Shown here piece by piece: positions 1-52,556 of a stretch of DNA of 64,000 bases. The stretch lies in contig NZ_QOHF01000022.1 in NCBI RefSeq assembly GCF_003319115.1, forward strand, positions 17,743 to 81,742, written 5' to 3'. The translations under genes were made by a program, and so were the position numbers. The notes beneath the pieces were generated by a model. That model made no database searches, had not been told where the DNA came from, and was given only the letters and a program-made list of their open reading frames with translations. Source of the stretch: Geodermatophilus sp. TF02-6 (GTDB lineage Bacteria; Actinomycetota; Actinomycetes; Mycobacteriales; Geodermatophilaceae). Every line of letters starts with the position of its first letter. The stretch's first letter is position 1.

Positions 1-765
1 CGCGCTCTGCTCGACGAGAGCCGCACCCCGGGCTGGGTGCCGGGCGAGGAGCAGGCCGACAGGCCCCCACCGGACGACGACCACGACGCCGAGCCGCCGG
101 ACGTGGCACTGCCCTCGGGCATCGGTCGGCACCGGGCCCCGGGCAGTGCGGTGCGGGTCGACCCCGGGCGCCGCGGTGCGTGGTCGCTGTGGGTGGTCGG
201 CCTGCTCGCCGCCCTGCTGGTCGCCGCCGCCACCTGGTCCGACCGGCCACAGGTGGAGCCGGCCCCGGTCCGGCCGGCCGAGCCGACGGCGTCCGCGCCG
301 GGCACCCCCGCCACGCCCTCGGTCGGGGTCGCGGCCGACTCCGCGTCGACCGTGGTGGTCTCGGTGGTCGGGCTCGTCACCCGGCCCGGGCTGGTCACCC
401 TCCCCGAGGGAGCCCGGGTCGCCGACGCGGTCGCGGCCGCTGGCGGGCTGCTGCCGGAGGCCGATCCGGCCTCGGTCAACCTCGCCGCGGTGGTGACCGA
501 CGGGCAGCAGGTCACGGTGGGTGTGCCGGGAGCGGCCGCGGCCGGTGCCGCTCCCTCCGGTGGGGGTGGCTCGGGGCTGGTGGACCTCAACACGGCGACC
601 GTCGCCGACCTCGACGCGCTGCCCGGCATCGGCCCCGTGCTCGCCCAGCGGATCGTCGACCACCGCGAGCAGCACGGGCGGTTCACGGCCGTCGAGCAGC
701 TGGACGACGTCCCCGGCATCGGCCCGGCCATCTACGCCGAGCTCGCCGAGCTGGTGACCGTGTGA
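1..765 (+). CDS. comEA: Competence protein ComEA (helix-hairpin-helix), 5' end outside window
   Basis: This is a membrane-anchored DNA-binding protein of the competence/DNA-uptake system. The frame is open from base 1 and a GTG exists at 37, so the true start may lie upstream. One hydrophobic segment follows the arginine-rich stretch (about bases 180-230). A SLBB-like domain follows (VVSVVGLVTRPGLVTLPEG), then a Gly/Ala linker and a C-terminal pair of helix-hairpin-helix motifs (LNTATVADLDALPGIGPVLA and VPGIGPAIYAELAEL). This order is standard for ComEA. The stop overlaps the comEC start as GTGA, which indicates translational coupling. Family assignment is firm; only the N-terminus is uncertain. 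Confidence 0.9.
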   Translation, partial: RALLDESRTPGWVPGEEQADRPPPDDDHDAEPPDVALPSGIGRHRAPGSAVRVDPGRRGAWSLWVVGLLAALLVAAATWSDRPQVEPAPVRPAEPTASAPGTPATPSVGVAADSASTVVVSVVGLVTRPGLVTLPEGARVADAVAAAGGLLPEADPASVNLAAVVTDGQQVTVGVPGAAAAGAAPSGGGGSGLVDLNTATVADLDALPGIGPVLAQRIVDHREQHGRFTAVEQLDDVPGIGPAIYAELAELVTV

Positions 766-10172: not shown

Positions 10173-10258
10173 GCCCGGACCGTAACGGAGGCTCCGCGCA
10201 CCTGCGACGCGCTCGGAGCCCAGGGACCGCTGGAGCCCCCGGTGCCGCCGACGGTCGC

Positions 10259-10333
10259 CGTGGTGGGCGATGGCGTGGTGGTCGATGGCGTGGTGGTCGA
10301 TGGCGTGGTGGTCGATGGCGTGGTGGGCGATGG
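10259..10333 (+). repeat. 15-bp tandem repeat, five copies
   Basis: The unit CGTGGTGGTCGATGG is repeated five times, the first and last copies with one change (GGGCG for GGTCG). It lies between two divergent genes, just upstream of the membrane-protein gene. One frame would read SMAWW repeats, but this is not believable as coding sequence. Confidence 0.85.
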
Positions 10334-10371
10334 CGGGAGCACCGCCGGGCAGGACCGCTAGCGTCAGGGAG

Positions 10372-11482: not shown

Positions 11483-12490
<1,008 letters not shown>

Positions 12491-12513: not shown

Positions 12514-12609
12514 GGAGGCGTCAGGGCGCCTGGTGGCCCCCGCGGCCTCTAAAGCCGACGTGGCCGAGCAGCTCGGTCAGGCGGGTTCGATTCCCGTCCG
12601 CCTCCGCCA
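12514..12609 (+). tRNA. selC: Selenocysteine tRNA with anticodon CUA (reads UAG)
   Basis: This 96-nt gene encodes its own GCCA 3' end. The acceptor GGAGGCG (12514-12520) pairs with CGCCTCC. A long variable arm folds as CCGAGC-A-GCTCGG, and the T arm is GCGGG-TTCGATT-CCCGT. The seven-base anticodon loop CTCTAAA (12547-12553) has U33 and then CTA at 12549-12551, so the anticodon is CUA, where the canonical bacterial loop CTTCAAA has UCA. Length, long variable arm and neighbours selD, selA and selB identify it as tRNA-Sec. The anticodon reads UAG, matching in-frame TAG codons in the next two genes. Confidence 0.94.
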
Positions 12610-12682: not shown

Positions 12683-13291
12683 GTGGCACGCATCCCGCTG
12701 ATCTCCGGCGACGACCCGGACGCCGACCCGAAGGCCCGTGAGCTGCTGGCGATGGTGCGCCAGAACCGCGGGCGCGAGGTGAACGTCTACCGCGGGATCG
12801 CCAACCACCCCGAGATCCTCGAGGCGGTGCTCCACCTGGGGCAGGTGGCCTACTTCGGCAACAGCCTCGACCCGGTGCAGCGGGAGCTGGCCTACTACAC
12901 CTCCGCCGTCACGAACGAGTGCTTCTACTAGACGCCGACCCACGTGGTGCTCGGTCGGAGCGCCGGGATCAGCGACGAGCAGATGGCGCACGTCCTCGAC
13001 GACCCGCTGCCCGCGGGGCTGTTCACCCCCGGCCAGGAGGCGATCGTCGTCTTCTGCCGGAAGTCCACCCTGATGCAGCCCATCGACGACGCCACGTGGA
13101 CGGCGCTGACCGAGCACTTCACCACCCGGCAGATCATGGAGATCACCTTCACCTGCGGGCTGAACCAGATGATCAGCCGCTTCCACGCCGCCGTCCGCAC
13201 CGACGTGGACACGCAGACGATGGACCAGCTGGGCGCCTCGTGCCCGGTCCGGCTGCCCTCGCTCCCCGCCGAGGGGCCGACCGAGGGGTGA
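12683..13291 (+). CDS. Carboxymuconolactone decarboxylase/AhpD-like selenoprotein with in-frame UAG (Sec83)
   Basis: The frame starts at GTG 12683 after a GAGGAGG ribosome site and runs to TGA 13291, interrupted only by TAG at 12929-12931. Reading TAG as selenocysteine gives a 202-aa CMD-family protein with NECFYU-TPTH. Cys80 and Sec83 form a CxxU redox pair, followed by His87, exactly where AhpD-like proteins have CxxCxxxH. Sequence on both sides is conserved family sequence (ARELLAMVRQNRGREVNVYR before; GRSAGISDEQMAHVLDDPL after), with no frame change. A hairpin with a GGTC loop begins 14 nt after the TAG. Standard gene callers will split it at the UAG. It is probably a peroxidase or thiol-redox enzyme. 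Confidence 0.9.
12946..12964 (+). promoter_or_regulatory. SECIS-like hairpin for the UAG at 12929
   Basis: GGTGCTC (12946-12952) pairs with GAGCGCC (12958-12964) in seven base pairs, one of them G-U, closing a loop GGTCG. The loop begins 21 nt after the UAG. Position and the GGUC apical loop parallel the bacterial SECIS of E. coli fdhF, which SelB recognises. Confidence 0.75.
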
Positions 13292-13430: not shown

Positions 13431-14574
13431 ATGACCGCACCGCCGGCGGTCGGCACCGTCCACGTCGTCGACCCCTCGCCGCTGAACTGGTTGTTCATCA
13501 CCTGGAACACCATGGAGGAGCCGATCCGCATCGACGAGGCCGGCCGCACCGTGTACGCGCTGGCCGAGTCCTCGCAGTGGCTCGACGACCGGACCCTGGA
13601 GCTGAAGCTGCGGCGCGGGGTCCGCTTCCAGGACGGCGAGCACTGCACCGCGCACAGCATCAAGCAGAACTTCGACGAGATGCAGCGCTGGGCCGCCCCG
13701 CACCCGCCGGGCACCTGGCTGAACTTCCCGGCGCCGGAGTCGACCGCCGAGGTGGTCGACGAGCACACCGTGCGCTTCTCCCTGCCCGGCCCCGACGGGC
13801 TGGCCATGGGCGAGTTCCGCGGCTTCCACATCGCCAGCTCGGCGTTCTGGAACGGCAAGGACGCCCCCGGCTTCGGCTACGAGGAGTTCGGCTCCGGTGA
13901 GGGCCACTGGTAGGTGATCGACGAGCCGGGCCCGTGGGGCACCGGTCCGTTCACCCTGGTCCAGGGTGCCTCCTCGATCACCACCCGCCTGGCGGTCATG
14001 AGCGCCGCCCCGTTCCGGGCGACCTCGATCGTCGACAGCGAGCAGCGCGACCCGCAGGTCGTGCTGGAGGCCAACCTCGACCACTGGAACCGCGCCGCCC
14101 GCGGTCCGCGGATCGAGCGCGCCGTCTTCCGCAACGACCTGACCCCCGACGAGGCGCTGCGGCTGGTCTGCGACACCGAGGGCGAGGTCGACATCGTCAC
14201 CGAGGTCTCCCCGGCCGACGCCCGGCGCGTGCTGGACTCCGCGCACGCCCGGCTGGTCGTCTGCGACGCCAACCGCGTGCTGGTGGGCATCGTCAACCGC
14301 GGCAGCGACGCGCCGCCGGACGACGTCGCGGATCGACCGGCACGTGCACGAGCAGGCGCTCGCGCTGTTCGTCTGCGCGCCCCAGGCGCTGTACGCGGTC
14401 AACGAGCACGTGTCGTTCACCCCGTACAAGACCACCTTCGAGCTCGCCGAGGTCACCGTCGACGAGCAGCACTGGTCGGTCACCGGCGGCGGGGCCGAGC
14501 TCGGCGACCGGACCCGGGTCCGGTCGACGAGCGGCAAGCCCACCTTCACGCAGGCCTCGGGCAACGCCTGCTGA
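13431..14574 (+). pseudogene. Solute-binding protein of a peptide-type ABC transporter with in-frame UAG (Sec161), disrupted by a later internal deletion
   Basis: ATG 13431 follows an AGGGGG ribosome site. The product resembles family 5 extracellular solute-binding proteins (LWNTMEEPIRI-type N-terminus, then LKLRRGVRFQDGEHCTAHS). TAG at 13911-13913 interrupts conserved sequence: SGEGHW-TAG-VIDEPGPWGTGPFTLV, with family sequence continuing in the same frame, so selenocysteine is likely here. Further on, the frame jumps near 14330: after NRGSDAPPDDV the C-terminal part RHVHEQALALFVCAPQALYA continues in the next frame, and over 100 residues of the usual 500-aa family length are missing. The deletion removes the central ligand-binding part, so the present allele is probably dead. 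No signal peptide or lipobox is obvious. Confidence 0.7.
13952..13968 (+). promoter_or_regulatory. Candidate SECIS-like hairpin for the UAG at 13911
   Basis: CACCCT (13952-13957) pairs perfectly with AGGGTG (13963-13968) around a GGTCC loop, echoing the GGTCG loop of the previous gene. The loop starts 44 nt after the UAG, further than usual. Another GGTC at 13944 lies in a weaker fold at 30 nt, and a strong GC hairpin (13925-13946) has a GTG loop. Confidence 0.4.
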
Positions 14575-14632: not shown

Positions 14633-15943
14633 ATGAGAGCCGATCCGCGGCGGCGCGTGCCGCGCACCGACACGCTGCTCGCCGACCCCGAGCTGGCCGC
14701 GGCCTCGGCGCGGCTGGGCCGGGAGCTGGTCAAGACCGCCGTCGCGCAGGTGCAGCAGCGCATCCGGGACGGCGCGCTCGCGCCCGCCGACGCCGTGCCC
14801 GCCGTCCTCTCCGGCCTGTCCGCGACGGCGAGCAGCCTGCGGCCGGTGCTCAACGCCACCGGCGTCCTCGTGCACACCAACCTGGGCCGCGCGCCGCTGT
14901 CGCCGGCCGCGCTCGAGGCGGTCGTCGCCGCTGGCGCCACCACCGACGTCGAGCTGGACCTGGTCACCGGCCGCCGCGGACCGCGCGGGGAGGCGGCGAT
15001 CGCCGCGCTGCTGACCGCCGTCCCCGCGGCCGAGGCGGCGCTCGTGGTCAACAACTGCGCCGCCGCCCTCGCGCTGACGGCGACCGCGCTCGGCGGGGAG
15101 CTGGTCATCGCCCGCGGCGAGCTGGTGGAGATCGGCGACGGGTTCCGCATCCCCGAGCTGCTGGAGGCCACCGGCGCCCGGCTGCGCGAGGTCGGGACGA
15201 CCAACCGGGTGACCCTCGCCGACTACCGCGCCGCCCTGTCCGAGCAGACCGGCGCGGTGCTCAAGGTGCACCCGTCGAACTTCGTCGTCCGCGGGTTCAC
15301 CCGGTCCGTGCCGGTGGCCGAGCTCGCCGCCGGGCTGGCCGGCAGCGGCGTCCCGCTGGTCGCCGACGTCGGGTCGGGGCTGCTGCGCCCGCACCCGGTG
15401 CTGCCCGACGAGCCAGACCTGCAGACCACCCTCGCCGACGGCGCCGACCTGGTGCTGGCCAGCGGCGACAAGCTGCTGGGCGGGCCGCAGGCCGGGCTGG
15501 TGCTCGGCCGCGCCGAGCTGGCGCAGCGGCTGCGCCGGCACCCGCTCTACCGCGCCTTCCGCGTCGACAAGACCACCCTGGCCGCGCTGGAGGCCACGCT
15601 GCGCGGACCGCTGCCGCCGGTGCAGCAGATGCTCGCCGCCGACGTCGCCGGGCTGCGCCGCCGCGCCCGGGGGCTGGCCGCCCGGCTGGCCGCCGCCGGC
15701 CTGGACGCGGTGGCGGTGGACTCCGAGGCGCGGGTCGGCGGGGGAGGGGCGCCCGAGCACCCGCTGCCCAGCGCCGCCGTCTCGCTGCCCGCGGAGTTCG
15801 CCGCGCCGCTGCGCGCCGGCACACCGCCGGTGGTCGGGTACCTGGCCGGCGACCGCACCCTGCTCGACCTGCGCAGCCTGCGCACCGAGGACGACGAGGC
15901 GCTGGCCGCCGCGGTGCTGGAGGTGGCGATCCGGTGCCGGTGA
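14633..15943 (+). CDS. selA: L-seryl-tRNA(Sec) selenium transferase
   Basis: This 436-aa PLP enzyme converts Ser-tRNA-Sec to Sec-tRNA-Sec using selenophosphate. The N-terminal [15 protein letters not shown] is typical, followed by [17 protein letters not shown] and the PLP-lysine motif [14 protein letters not shown] with Lys280. It sits between the UAG-containing genes and selB in the same direction. The ATG at 14633 is the first good start. It is complete and apparently intact, so the selenocysteine pathway should be functional even though one target gene is broken. Confidence 0.96.
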
Positions 15944-15955
15944 CCCCCGACGGCA

Positions 15956-16005
15956 TGGACGTGACGGCGTGGACGTGACGGCGTGGACGTGACGGCGTGG
16001 ACGTG
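15956..16005 (+). repeat. 14-bp tandem repeat covering the selB start
   Basis: Three full copies and one partial copy of TGGACGTGACGGCG lie between the selA stop and selB. The final partial copy contains the selB start GTGGACGTGATC. The period is not a multiple of three, and earlier copies offer GTG starts that run into TGA in frame. Confidence 0.9.
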
Positions 16006-17742
16006 ATCGCCACCGCCGGCCACGTCGACCACGGCAAGTCGACGCTGGTCCGGGCGCTCACCGGCATGGAGCCCGACCGGTGGGAGGAGGAGCGCCGCCG
16101 CGGGCTGACCATCGACCTGGGCTTCGCCTGGACGACGCTGCCCTCGGGCCGCCGGCTGGCGGTCGTCGACGTCCCCGGGCACGAGCGGTTCGTCGGCAAC
16201 ATGCTCGCCGGCGTCGGCTCGGTGCCCGCCGCGCTGGTCGTGGTGGCGGCGGACGACGGCTGGTCGGCGCAGACCGCCGAGCACGTCGCCGTCCTCGACG
16301 CCCTCGGGGTGCGCTCCGCGCTGCTGGCGGTGACCAAGGCCGACCTCGCCGACCCGGCGCCGGTGCTGGCCGACGTCCGGGCGCGGCTGGCGGGGACCTC
16401 GATGGGGGAGGTGCCCGGCGTGGCGGTCAGCGCCGCCACCGGAGCCGGCGTGCCCGACGTCGTCGCGGCGCTGGAAGCGGTGCTCGCGGGGCTGCCGGCC
16501 CCCGACCGCGAGGCGCCGGTGCGGCTGTGGATCGACCGGGCCTTCCCGATCAAGGGCGCCGGCACCGTGGTCACCGGCACCCTCGCCGCCGGGCGCGTCG
16601 CCCCCGGCGACCGGCTGCAGCTCGGCGACCGCGAGGTCGGCGTCCGCGGCGTGCAGTCGCTGGGCCGACCGGTGCAGCGGGCCGAGGCCACCGCGCGGGT
16701 GGCGCTGAACCTGCGTGGCACCGCGGTGGAGGAGCTGGCCCGCGGCGACGCGCTGCTCACCCCGGGCGCGTTCCGCTCCACCGCCGACCTCGACGTGACC
16801 CTCGACCGGCAGCCCGAGGAGCGCCTGCCGGCCGAGGCGGTCGTGCACGTCGGCTCGGCCGCGGTGGGCGCCCGGCTGCGGCCCCTGGAGGGGACGGCGG
16901 TGCGGCTGCGGCTGGTCACGCCGCTGCCGCTGCGGGTCGGCGACCGCCTGCTGCTGCGCGACCCCGGCGCCCGGCGGGTGCTCGGCGCCGACGTCCGCGA
17001 CGTCGACCCGCCGGAACTGCGCCGCCGTGGAGCGGCCCGCCGGCGCGGCGCCGAGCTGGCCGGGCAGCCCGCGGGCGCGGCCGGCGCCGCCGCCGACCTG
17101 GCCCGGCGCCGCGTGGTCCGGGCCGCGGACTTCGCCGCGATGGGATGGCCGGTCCCCGAGGGCGCGACCGCCGTCGGGCCGTGGCTGCTCGCCCCCGGGC
17201 TGGTCGACGAGCTGGCCGCCGCGCTGCCGGACGTGGTGACCCGCTACCGGCGGCTGCGGCCGCTGGAGGCCGGCCCGCCGGTCGCCGTCGTCCAGCGGGC
17301 CCTGGACCTGCCCGGCCCCGAGCTGGTCCCCGCCGTCGTCCGTCCGCCGCTGGCGCTGCGCGAGGGTCGGGTGGCCGCGGCGACCGCGGGGCTGCCGCCG
17401 GCCGTGCAGCGGGCGGTCGACGACCTCCGCGCCCGCCTGGCGGCCGACCCGTTCGCCGCGCCGGAGGCGCCGGACCTGGCCGCCGCCGGCCTGGGCCCGC
17501 GGGAGCTGGCCGCCGCCGTCCGCGACGGTCAGCTGGTCAAGGTCGCCGACGGGGTGTACCTGGCGCCCGGGGTGGAGCAGGTCGCGCGCGAGCGGCTGAC
17601 CGGGCTGGCCGCGCCGTTCACCCTCAGCCAGGCCCGCTCGGCGTGGAGGACCACCCGGCGGGTGGCCGTGCCGCTCATGGAGCGGCTCGACGCCCGCGGG
17701 ATCACCGAGCGGCTGCCGGACAACACCCGCCGACTGCGCTAG
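15997..17742 (+). CDS. selB: Selenocysteine-specific elongation factor
   Basis: The 581-aa SelB carries Sec-tRNA to the ribosome and binds the SECIS. The GTPase domain opens [16 protein letters not shown] (G1 at residues 7-16), with DVPGHERF (58-65) as G3 and TKADLAD as G4. EF-Tu-like domains II and III follow, then a C-terminal winged-helix array (ending around [17 protein letters not shown]) for SECIS binding. The length is close to the 614 aa of the E. coli protein. The GTG start lies within the 14-bp repeat array. Notably the gene itself ends with TAG, the codon presumed to mean selenocysteine, but no GGTC-loop hairpin follows it. Confidence 0.95.
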
Positions 17743-51089: not shown

Positions 51090-52556
51090 GCGCCGACGCG
51101 CTCTCGGGTCGGCTTCGCGACGTCGCGGCTGACGCATGGGCGCCGCACGTGCTGCTCATCGCTCCGCACGCGGCGCAGGTCAGCGCCGGGCTGGCCGAGT
51201 CGCTGACCGCGGTCCAGCAGCAGCCGGCTCGGGGCGCGGTCGCGGTGGTGCTGGCCGGCGACGACATCGACCAGGCCGACGACCTCCGGTGGCGGCTGAC
51301 CATCGATGACGCCGGGGGTCCTGCGCATCCCTGCACTGGGACTGGAGCTGTGTGCCCAGCAGCTTCCTGCTGAGGAGGCCGCGCAGCTGGCTCAAGTCCT
51401 CGCCCTGGCGTCTGTCACCGAAGACCGAGCCGTCCCGCGGGCCCACGGAAGCCAGCCGTGGGACGCCCACGCCGATGCCTGCGGTGGCCTCCGAGTCGAC
51501 CCACTCGGCGCCGCGCGGCGGGAGCTACCGGACTCCGCCGCGGCTGAAGACCCGTCGCCGGACCTGGCAGGGTCAGCTCCCCTCGATGACCAGCTCGGTA
51601 CTGCCGCTGCCCGCGCAGGCTTACCTGGAGCAGGCAGCGACCACCGAGCGCGACCTACACGTGCTGGCTCCGGCAATCGACGACCGCATCCGTCGCGAGG
51701 TGCAGAGCGCAGACCCCGGCCTGGACGCCGACCTCGCCGACTGGGCCGACCCGTCCTGCCCACGTCCGAAGTTGACTCTGCTCGGTCCGGTCCAGGTGCG
51801 CGCTCAGGGCTCCCTGCCGCAGCGCAATCCGTGACGGCAGTTCTACACCGAGATCGTCGCCTACCTGGCGACCCGGCCGGGCGGGGTGACCAGCGAGCGC
51901 TACGCCACCGCCATCTGGCCCAACGAACCCGACGTCGTCGGCAAGACCAAGGTGCGCCAGTCCATCGCCGTCGTGCGAGCGTGGCTCGGCACCGATCCGG
52001 ACACCGGCGCCGACTACCTGCCCTCCGGGCTCACCGCCGCGGCGGCCGGGCGGTACCGCATCGACGGCATCCTCGTGGACGCCGAGGTCTTCCGCCGGCT
52101 GCGGGTCCGAGGCCTGGCCCGCGGAGCCGACGGCATGGCGGACCTGTGCGCGGCGCTCGACCTGGTCACTGGCCGTCCGTCGACCTGCCCGCCCCGCGTC
52201 AGGGCGCTGCCGGCGGCTACGGCTGGCTGATCGACGAGGACGCCCGGCTGGACCTCGAGTACGCCGCGATGATCGTCGACGTCGCCCACACCGTCGTCAC
52301 CCACTACCTCGGCGTCGGACGGCCTTAGCTTGCCGAGGCCGCTGCCCAGGTGGCCCTGAAGGCCGGCAGCTACGAAGACGTGCCGCTGCTCGACCTGGTC
52401 GCTGCCTGCGACGCCCAGACAAGCGAACTAGGGCTGACGCCTACGTCGCCCGCATCCTGGCCAACCACGACGCCGGGGTGGAAGAAGATCTGCCCCAGGA
52501 CGGCGGAGATCCTCTTCCGACGACAGTGGACCCGATCGAGCGGGGGCGCACCTGCT
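51090..52556 (+). pseudogene. Decayed large regulator-like gene with a BTAD/SARP-type C-terminal domain
   Basis: Collinear pieces of one protein appear in changing frames. LRDVAADAWAPHVLLIAPHA (from about 51110) is followed by LRIPALGLELCAQQLPAEEA in another frame, then PKLTLLGPVQVRAQG, TGA at 51832, and YTEIVAYLATRPGGVTSERY, KTKVRQSIAVVRAWLG and ILVDAEVFRRLRVRGLARGA. A frameshift near 52190 leads to GGYGWLIDEDARLDLEYAAM, TAG at 52326, and KAGSYEDVPLLDLVAACDAQ, with a last shift to YVARILANHDAGVEEDLP. The LLGPV and tetratricopeptide-like end resemble bacterial transcriptional-activator domains (SARP/LysM-BTAD proteins) carried on actinobacterial mobile elements. At least four lesions make it dead. 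Confidence 0.65.

What the first reader, a model, noticed from the sequence alone, without database searches (positions are those of the whole stretch)
12514..12609. Selenocysteine tRNA with CUA anticodon, predicting UAG as the Sec codon
The tRNA-Sec loop reads CTCTAAA, so the anticodon is CUA rather than UCA. All other features (96 nt, long variable arm, selD/selA/selB neighbours) fit tRNA-Sec. This is a natural variation of the genetic code. UAG-programmed selenoprotein synthesis has been reported for Geodermatophilus and Blastococcus (Mukai, Soell and colleagues, 2016), and this window fits that description.
Basis: partly seen in the sequence, partly recalled or inferred. Interest (0 to 1): 0.96.

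Follow-up and report, generated by a model that had tools for sequence, protein, structure and literature searches.

The report
Bacterial selenocysteine tRNA rewired to UAG
A soil bacterium's selenocysteine tRNA carries the anticodon CUA and is therefore predicted to read the stop codon UAG as selenocysteine; this kind of tRNA was already known, but two neighbouring genes, whose internal stop codon matches the tRNA's anticodon in every intact relative we compared, are likely further selenoproteins, one of them from a family we did not find described.

Summary
ARAGORN and Rfam place a tRNA-Sec at 12514-12609 with anticodon CUA (12549-12551), between selD and selA-selB; no UCA tRNA-Sec was found in this genome. 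CUA tRNA-Sec in Geodermatophilaceae is already in print (PMC5330540, citing Mukai 2016).

Added here: (1) a census: of 112 family genomes 108 have a tRNA-Sec, CUA in 101 (one also holds a UCA copy), UCA alone in 7. (2) A second fixed change: anticodon-stem pair 31-39 is C-G in 102 of 102 CUA tRNAs, U-A in 44 of 45 UCA tRNAs. (3) Two genes beside selC, each with one in-frame UAG: an AhpD-fold CxxU protein and an orphan SBP_bac_5 protein. Their counted orthologs carry UAG in CUA genomes (24 of 24) and UGA in UCA genomes (15 of 15); one broken copy with UAA was left out. The first has a compensated GGUC-loop hairpin behind the codon. The second is a deleted remnant in this window but open elsewhere in the genome; it matches no selenoprotein model of NCBIfam, is not in a 119-family inventory, and recurs with UGA beside selB in Methylobacterium.

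Selenium incorporation itself is inferred.

The parts
12514..12609 (+). selC, tRNA-Sec, 96 nt with CCA
   Evidence: ARAGORN; Rfam RF01852 65.3 bits
12549..12551 (+). anticodon CUA (positions 34-36)
   Evidence: ARAGORN anticodon position; sequence
12546..12554 (+). anticodon loop with its closing pair C31-G39 (12546 with 12554), the pair that is U-A in UCA tRNA-Sec
   Evidence: 102 of 102 CUA tRNAs C-G, 44 of 45 UCA tRNAs U-A, 1 G-U
11483..12490 (-). selD, selenophosphate synthetase (Cys form)
   Evidence: TIGR00476 379.6 bits, cut-off 125; sequence
12683..13291 (+). predicted selenoprotein, CMD/AhpD fold, 202 aa, motif CFYU
   Evidence: PF02627 46.3 bits; one in-frame TAG in 9 of 9 close family orthologs, TGA in 10 of 10 Pseudonocardiaceae orthologs
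12929..12931 (+). predicted Sec codon UAG of the CMD gene
12946..12964 (+). predicted SECIS hairpin, 7 bp, apical loop GGUC(G) at 12953-12957
   Evidence: 7 of 7 pairs in 18 of 19 orthologs, 6 of 7 in one; more stable than synonymous shuffles in 16 of 19 (window chosen after folding)
13431..14571 (+). remnant of an SBP_bac_5 gene (residues 1-300 and 482-566 of the full-length ortholog P0008; about 181 codons lost, frame changed at 14327-14332)
13911..13913 (+). in-frame UAG at the predicted Sec site of the SBP remnant (GEGHW-U-VIDEPGPW)
14633..15943 (+). selA, Sec synthase
   Evidence: TIGR00474 419.8 bits, cut-off 267.9
16003..17742 (+). selB, Sec-specific elongation factor; ends in UAG used as a stop
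   Evidence: TIGR00475 270.4 bits, cut-off 242.25; SelB-wing_3 at 537-575 of 579 aa

Best explanation
This is a tRNA-Sec gene with the anticodon CUA, which likely delivers selenocysteine to those in-frame UAG codons that are followed by a predicted SECIS hairpin, while UAG elsewhere likely stays a stop. Steps inferred from the known bacterial pathway: SerRS charges the tRNA with serine, SelA (with selenophosphate from SelD) converts it to Sec-tRNA, and SelB carries it to a UAG that has a SelB-binding hairpin just downstream, in competition with RF1. None of these partners is thought to need the anticodon (recalled), so an anticodon change moves the Sec codon in one step, and the selenoprotein genes must follow. 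Shown here: the genes did follow. Two selenoprotein-like families that sit beside selC carry UAG where the genome's tRNA-Sec is CUA and UGA where it is UCA. The CMD protein has Sec at the second position of the CxxC motif of the AhpD fold, so a peroxide- or disulfide-reducing role is likely. The SBP protein has no signal peptide by eye and no permease was seen beside it, so a cytoplasmic role rather than import is likely.
For: tRNA; no UCA tRNA-Sec seen in this genome. Codon follows anticodon: CMD 9 TAG genes in 9 CUA genomes and 10 TGA genes in 9 UCA genomes; SBP 15 TAG genes in 12 CUA genomes and 5 TGA genes in 5 UCA genomes (anticodons); Fisher 4e-11 without correction for kinship; at least 2 codon changes on each of the two gene trees. 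Synteny: selC-SBP-selA-selB in G073 with UCA and UGA. GGUC hairpin: codon GGT at the loop in 19 of 19 CMD genes against 16 of 425 Gly codons in the window's training ORFs; compensated pairs. The Sec column aligns with the second Cys of CxxC in 2ouw; the model matches AhpD/CMD structures.
Against: No proteome or selenium data. The SBP hairpin is not more stable than synonymous shuffles in 19 of 20 genes (window 6-39), and the longer CMD window (0-45) is so in only 2 of 19. The window's own SBP copy is broken. A UAG formate dehydrogenase, reported by others, was not found by my two searches. One family copy (G074) has UAA at the site; it has three stops and was left out. A codon-bias scan alone is not specific: 3 TAG and 4 TGA/TAA candidates in the window. 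Two distant CMD proteins show Trp at the Sec column.
Confidence: 0.93

Rival explanations
1. A tRNA-Pyl: the CUA tRNA inserts pyrrolysine at UAG.
For: ARAGORN's label, which follows from the anticodon.
Against: RF01852 tRNA-Sec matches over its full length; selD, selA and selB are the neighbours; the sequence is nearly that of UCA tRNA-Sec of sister genera; orthologs at the same column use UGA in UCA genomes. PylS was not searched for.
Confidence: 0.01
2. The internal UAGs are nonsense mutations in decaying genes, and the tRNA is irrelevant to them.
For: The window's SBP copy has a deletion and a frame change; the copies in G048 and G104 (C115) are also interrupted.
Against: One stop at one fixed column in 39 of 39 counted genes, type set by the anticodon; the CMD reading frame is open on both sides and conserved; compensated hairpin behind the codon; independent codon changes on both trees.
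Confidence: 0.03
3. UAG is reassigned to Sec genome-wide rather than by context.
For: UAG is the minority terminator: 6 of 57 gene calls in the window, 35 of 298 larger calls over all stretches, Sec sites included.
Against: selB itself ends in UAG at the end of its last domain. RF1 was not searched for.
Confidence: 0.02

Closest known systems
CUA tRNA-Sec / UAG-Sec code of Geodermatophilaceae (Mukai et al. 2016, not held; described in PMC5330540, passages read)
   Same: Same family of bacteria, same anticodon, UGSC-motif selenoproteins with UAG (two in this genome).
   Different: The passages name formate dehydrogenase, UGSC and AhpC; the CMD and SBP genes, the UCA sister genera and the C31-G39 pair are not in the passages I saw. 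The 2016 paper itself I could not read.
CMD-like and AhpD-like CxxU selenoproteins (PF02627, TIGR01926, NF041238; Table 1 of PMC13188914)
   Same: AhpD fold, CxxU, even the CFYUT motif of NF041238 (20.8 bits, below its cut-off of 175).
   Different: Sec codon is UAG here; below the cut-off of every NCBIfam model matched.
SaoB and SaoX, Sec-containing ABC substrate-binding proteins; BtuF-like selenoprotein (Table 1 of PMC13188914)
   Same: A substrate-binding-protein fold with Sec.
   Different: Different families: P0008 and P0007 match no Sao model at E <= 0.01; motif GEGHWU-IDxPGPW; no signal peptide by eye.
NikA/DppA-type SBP_bac_5 proteins (PF00496; solved structures such as 8upi, 4wed, 1zlq)
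   Same: Pfam domain and sequence similarity over both lobes.
   Different: In-frame Sec codon, C-terminal GNAC in one clade, no permease genes seen next to the copies examined.

Membership tests
bacterial tRNA-Sec (RF01852) | covariance-model match over the curated cut-off | tested here: met
   65.3 bits against 47, positions 1-91
bacterial tRNA-Sec (RF01852) | linkage to selA, selB, selD | tested here: met
bacterial tRNA-Sec (RF01852) | charged by SerRS and converted by SelA | not testable with these tools
   needs biochemistry
UAG-programmed Sec code | CUA anticodon and no UCA tRNA-Sec in the genome | tested here: met
   one sub-cut-off match (31.8 bits) was not read
UAG-programmed Sec code | selenoprotein genes with UAG at the Sec site | tested here: met
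   CMD and SBP, UGSC two genes
UAG-programmed Sec code | Sec-UAG formate dehydrogenase, as reported for the family | tested here: not met
   no formate dehydrogenase match at E <= 1e-120 or 1e-150 in this genome; not a requirement
bacterial SECIS | SelB-type hairpin 16-37 nt behind the codon, conserved | tested here: met
   CMD: GGUC loop 22-25 nt behind UAG, compensated; distance range recalled
bacterial SECIS | the same for the SBP gene | tested here: inconclusive
   hairpins present but not beyond synonymous shuffles in 19 of 20 (window 6-39); a second hairpin is in 11 of 20
AhpD-like CxxU selenoprotein | AhpD fold and CxxC aligned with CxxU | tested here: met
   PF02627, Foldseek, 2ouw alignment
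AhpD_rel_CFYUT (NF041238) | score over the curated cut-off | tested here: not met
   20.8 of 175 bits
SBP_bac_5 transporter component | signal peptide and neighbouring permease | tested here: not met
   no signal peptide by eye (no predictor run); neighbours of the copies examined are ADH, MRJP-like, hydrolase, DsbA-like or sel genes; not every neighbour was identified
SaoB / SaoX selenoproteins | NCBIfam match | tested here: not met

The most novel reading that the evidence does not exclude
The GEGHWU protein is an undescribed selenoprotein family, a cytoplasmic Sec-bearing SBP fold found in Actinomycetota and Alphaproteobacteria and cut in two at its Sec codon in the 120 best database entries; and Geodermatophilaceae moved their Sec code from UGA to UAG by a coupled change of the tRNA (anticodon plus pair 31-39), after which at least two selenoprotein families rewrote their Sec codons to match, giving a natural before-and-after record of a codon switch.
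Probability: 0.8. Interest if true: 0.75.

Novelty: new member of a known kind. Interest (0 to 1): 0.62.

Why it matters
The UAG-Sec code is known, but how a Sec code moves from one stop codon to another is not. Here sister genera on either side of the switch keep the same genes, in one case in the same order (selC-SBP-selA-selB), with UGA on one side and UAG on the other, and the tRNA shows a second fixed change besides the anticodon. That makes the switch testable piece by piece. The SBP family, if confirmed, adds a selenoprotein that gene finders split at its Sec codon, as the 120 best database matches are.

Tried and rejected
tRNA-Pyl: rejected (Rfam match, sel neighbours). UAA as a third code in genus g7: rejected, since that SBP copy (G074) has three stops and the genome's tRNA-Sec is UCA. 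More selenoproteins in other selC-selA gaps: of 146 loci tested 17 had a gap over 200 bases and 12 showed no selA; 7 gap regions without CMD or SBP hits were read and no UAG-split gene was seen. UAG formate dehydrogenase: not found. AlphaFold of the SBP protein: mean pLDDT 51.6, not used. SBP in wider samples: 1 of 394 genomes of the class (this one; only 3 candidates per genome scored) and 0 of 35 named genomes. TAG at 52326: coding-like on both sides, in a frame with other stops, not pursued.

Wrong-frame translations that were discarded. The SelA tree labelled 11 of 37 'UCA' rows by default because no tRNA lay in their locus, and my filter dropped L328 and L329.

Full report
The tRNA. ARAGORN and Rfam agree on 12514-12609. 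The anticodon loop CTCTAAA gives CUA at 12549-12551. selD lies upstream on the other strand, selA and selB downstream. Rfam finds no other tRNA-Sec in the genome among the 8 of 9 matches that could be read; the ninth scored 31.8 bits, below the cut-off. The SelA tree puts the window among Geodermatophilus and Blastococcus.

What is known. PMC5330540 (passages) reports three Geodermatophilaceae genomes with CUA tRNA-Sec, cites Mukai et al. 2016 for the discovery, and names formate dehydrogenase, UGSC and AhpC as selenoproteins. The 2016 paper is not held, so I cannot say whether it shows any of what follows. In this genome two of three UGSC genes have UAG at the site and one has no stop. I did not find a UAG formate dehydrogenase with my queries; three UCA genomes of genus g7 have UGA in theirs.

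Census. Of 112 genomes of the family, 108 have a tRNA-Sec match at E <= 1e-9. All 110 tRNAs were read: 102 CUA in 101 genomes and 8 UCA, of which 7 are in genomes of the genera g5, g6 and g7 and one is a second copy in G058. Other Actinomycetota: 37 of 48 loci showed a tRNA-Sec, all 37 UCA. On the SelA tree the 46 CUA rows form one side of a branch (100/100), in keeping with one origin; the 37 'UCA' rows include 11 labelled by default. The g7 rows do not fall next to the CUA clade but near Saccharopolyspora (94/72), so the sel genes of g7 may have another history.

A second change in the tRNA. The pair that closes the anticodon stem (31-39) is C-G in 102 of 102 CUA tRNAs. In 45 UCA tRNAs it is U-A in 44 and G-U in one, whose loop is also odd. 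A role in decoding is a guess; it was not tested.

Two genes beside selC. The CMD gene (12683-13291) has one in-frame TAG at 12929 and the motif CFYU. In the family search (28 rows) nine rows are 51-100% identical and all nine have TAG at that column. The other 19 rows are 24-36% identical; at the aligned place 13 read GAG and 5 TGC, one was not aligned; they were not counted. In Pseudonocardiaceae 9 of 297 genomes have 10 orthologs, all with TGA there, and all 9 have UCA tRNA-Sec; in two, CMD follows selC directly (coordinates).

The SBP gene (13431-14571) has TAG at 13911. In the family search (19 rows) 15 genes have TAG, G073 has TGA, G074 TAA, and 2 rows do not reach the site. G073 has a UCA tRNA-Sec and the order selC-SBP-selA-selB. 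G074 has three stops and was dropped. In Pseudonocardiaceae 4 of 297 genomes have it, all with TGA, all UCA; one of these matches is partial. In Methylobacterium radiotolerans plasmid pNYY1_1 a 40% identical homolog has TGA at the same place and lies directly before selB; no tRNA-Sec was found in the 13 kb fetched.

Taken together 24 of 24 genes in CUA genomes have TAG and 15 of 15 in UCA genomes have TGA. Related genes are not independent, so the Fisher value of 4e-11 overstates the case; the trees need at least two codon changes in each family, and each one goes with the anticodon.

SECIS. In the CMD genes a 7-bp hairpin with GGUC at its tip lies 15-33 nt behind the codon. All 7 pairs stand in 18 of 19 genes (6 in one), with both sides changed at pairs 2, 3 and 6; my script took the better of two registers. 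The loop Gly codon is GGT in 19 of 19, although GGT is 16 of 425 Gly codons in ten window ORFs used as background. The hairpin is more stable than synonymous shuffles in 16 of 19 (p <= 0.05); that window was chosen after folding, and a longer one (0-45) gives 2 of 19. For SBP the first hairpin gives 1 of 20, a second one 11 of 20, the whole stretch 1 of 20. So the SECIS is supported for CMD and open for SBP.

What the proteins may do. The CMD model (pLDDT 83.6) matches AhpD and CMD structures (best 3lvy, E 4e-6, TM 0.60 by query), and Sec aligns with the second Cys of CxxC in 2ouw. The second Cys is the peroxide-attacking one in AhpD (recalled). SBP is PF00496, starts at its first domain strand without a signal peptide (by eye), and in this genome's second copy (G000 C13, one UAG, otherwise open) lies between a zinc alcohol dehydrogenase and an MRJP/SGL-like gene. 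Of the 120 best database proteins out of 915 matches, 117 begin at the residues right after the Sec codon, 116 end in GNAC, and none is full length; their DNA was not seen.

Not described? P0008 and P0007 match only sub-cut-off transporter models in NCBIfam. Table 1 of PMC13188914 (119 families; section 7 parts 1 and 2 read) lists no PF00496 selenoprotein. Paper searches gave none. Subscription papers are not covered.

The window's own SBP copy lacks residues 301-481 and changes frame, so it is a remnant. UAG stays a stop in part: selB ends in it.

Noticed in passing
Contaminant or mobile element.
   Followed up: partly
L168 (G074): An SBP copy with UAA at the Sec site and two further stops, in a genome with UCA tRNA-Sec.
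   Followed up: partly
L166, L172, L174, L176: The second SBP clade recurs next to a zinc alcohol dehydrogenase, an MRJP/SGL-like protein and a hemerythrin-alpha/beta-hydrolase fusion, in varying sets, perhaps one pathway.
   Followed up: no
window 10258-10340 and 15950-16005: Short tandem repeats, the second (units like GGCGTGGACGTGAC) running up to the selB start.
   Followed up: no
window 52326: A TAG with coding-like codon use on both sides.
   Followed up: no
P0138, P0148: Two distant CMD proteins show Trp at the Sec column; this could be a UGA translated as Trp by the source.
   Followed up: no
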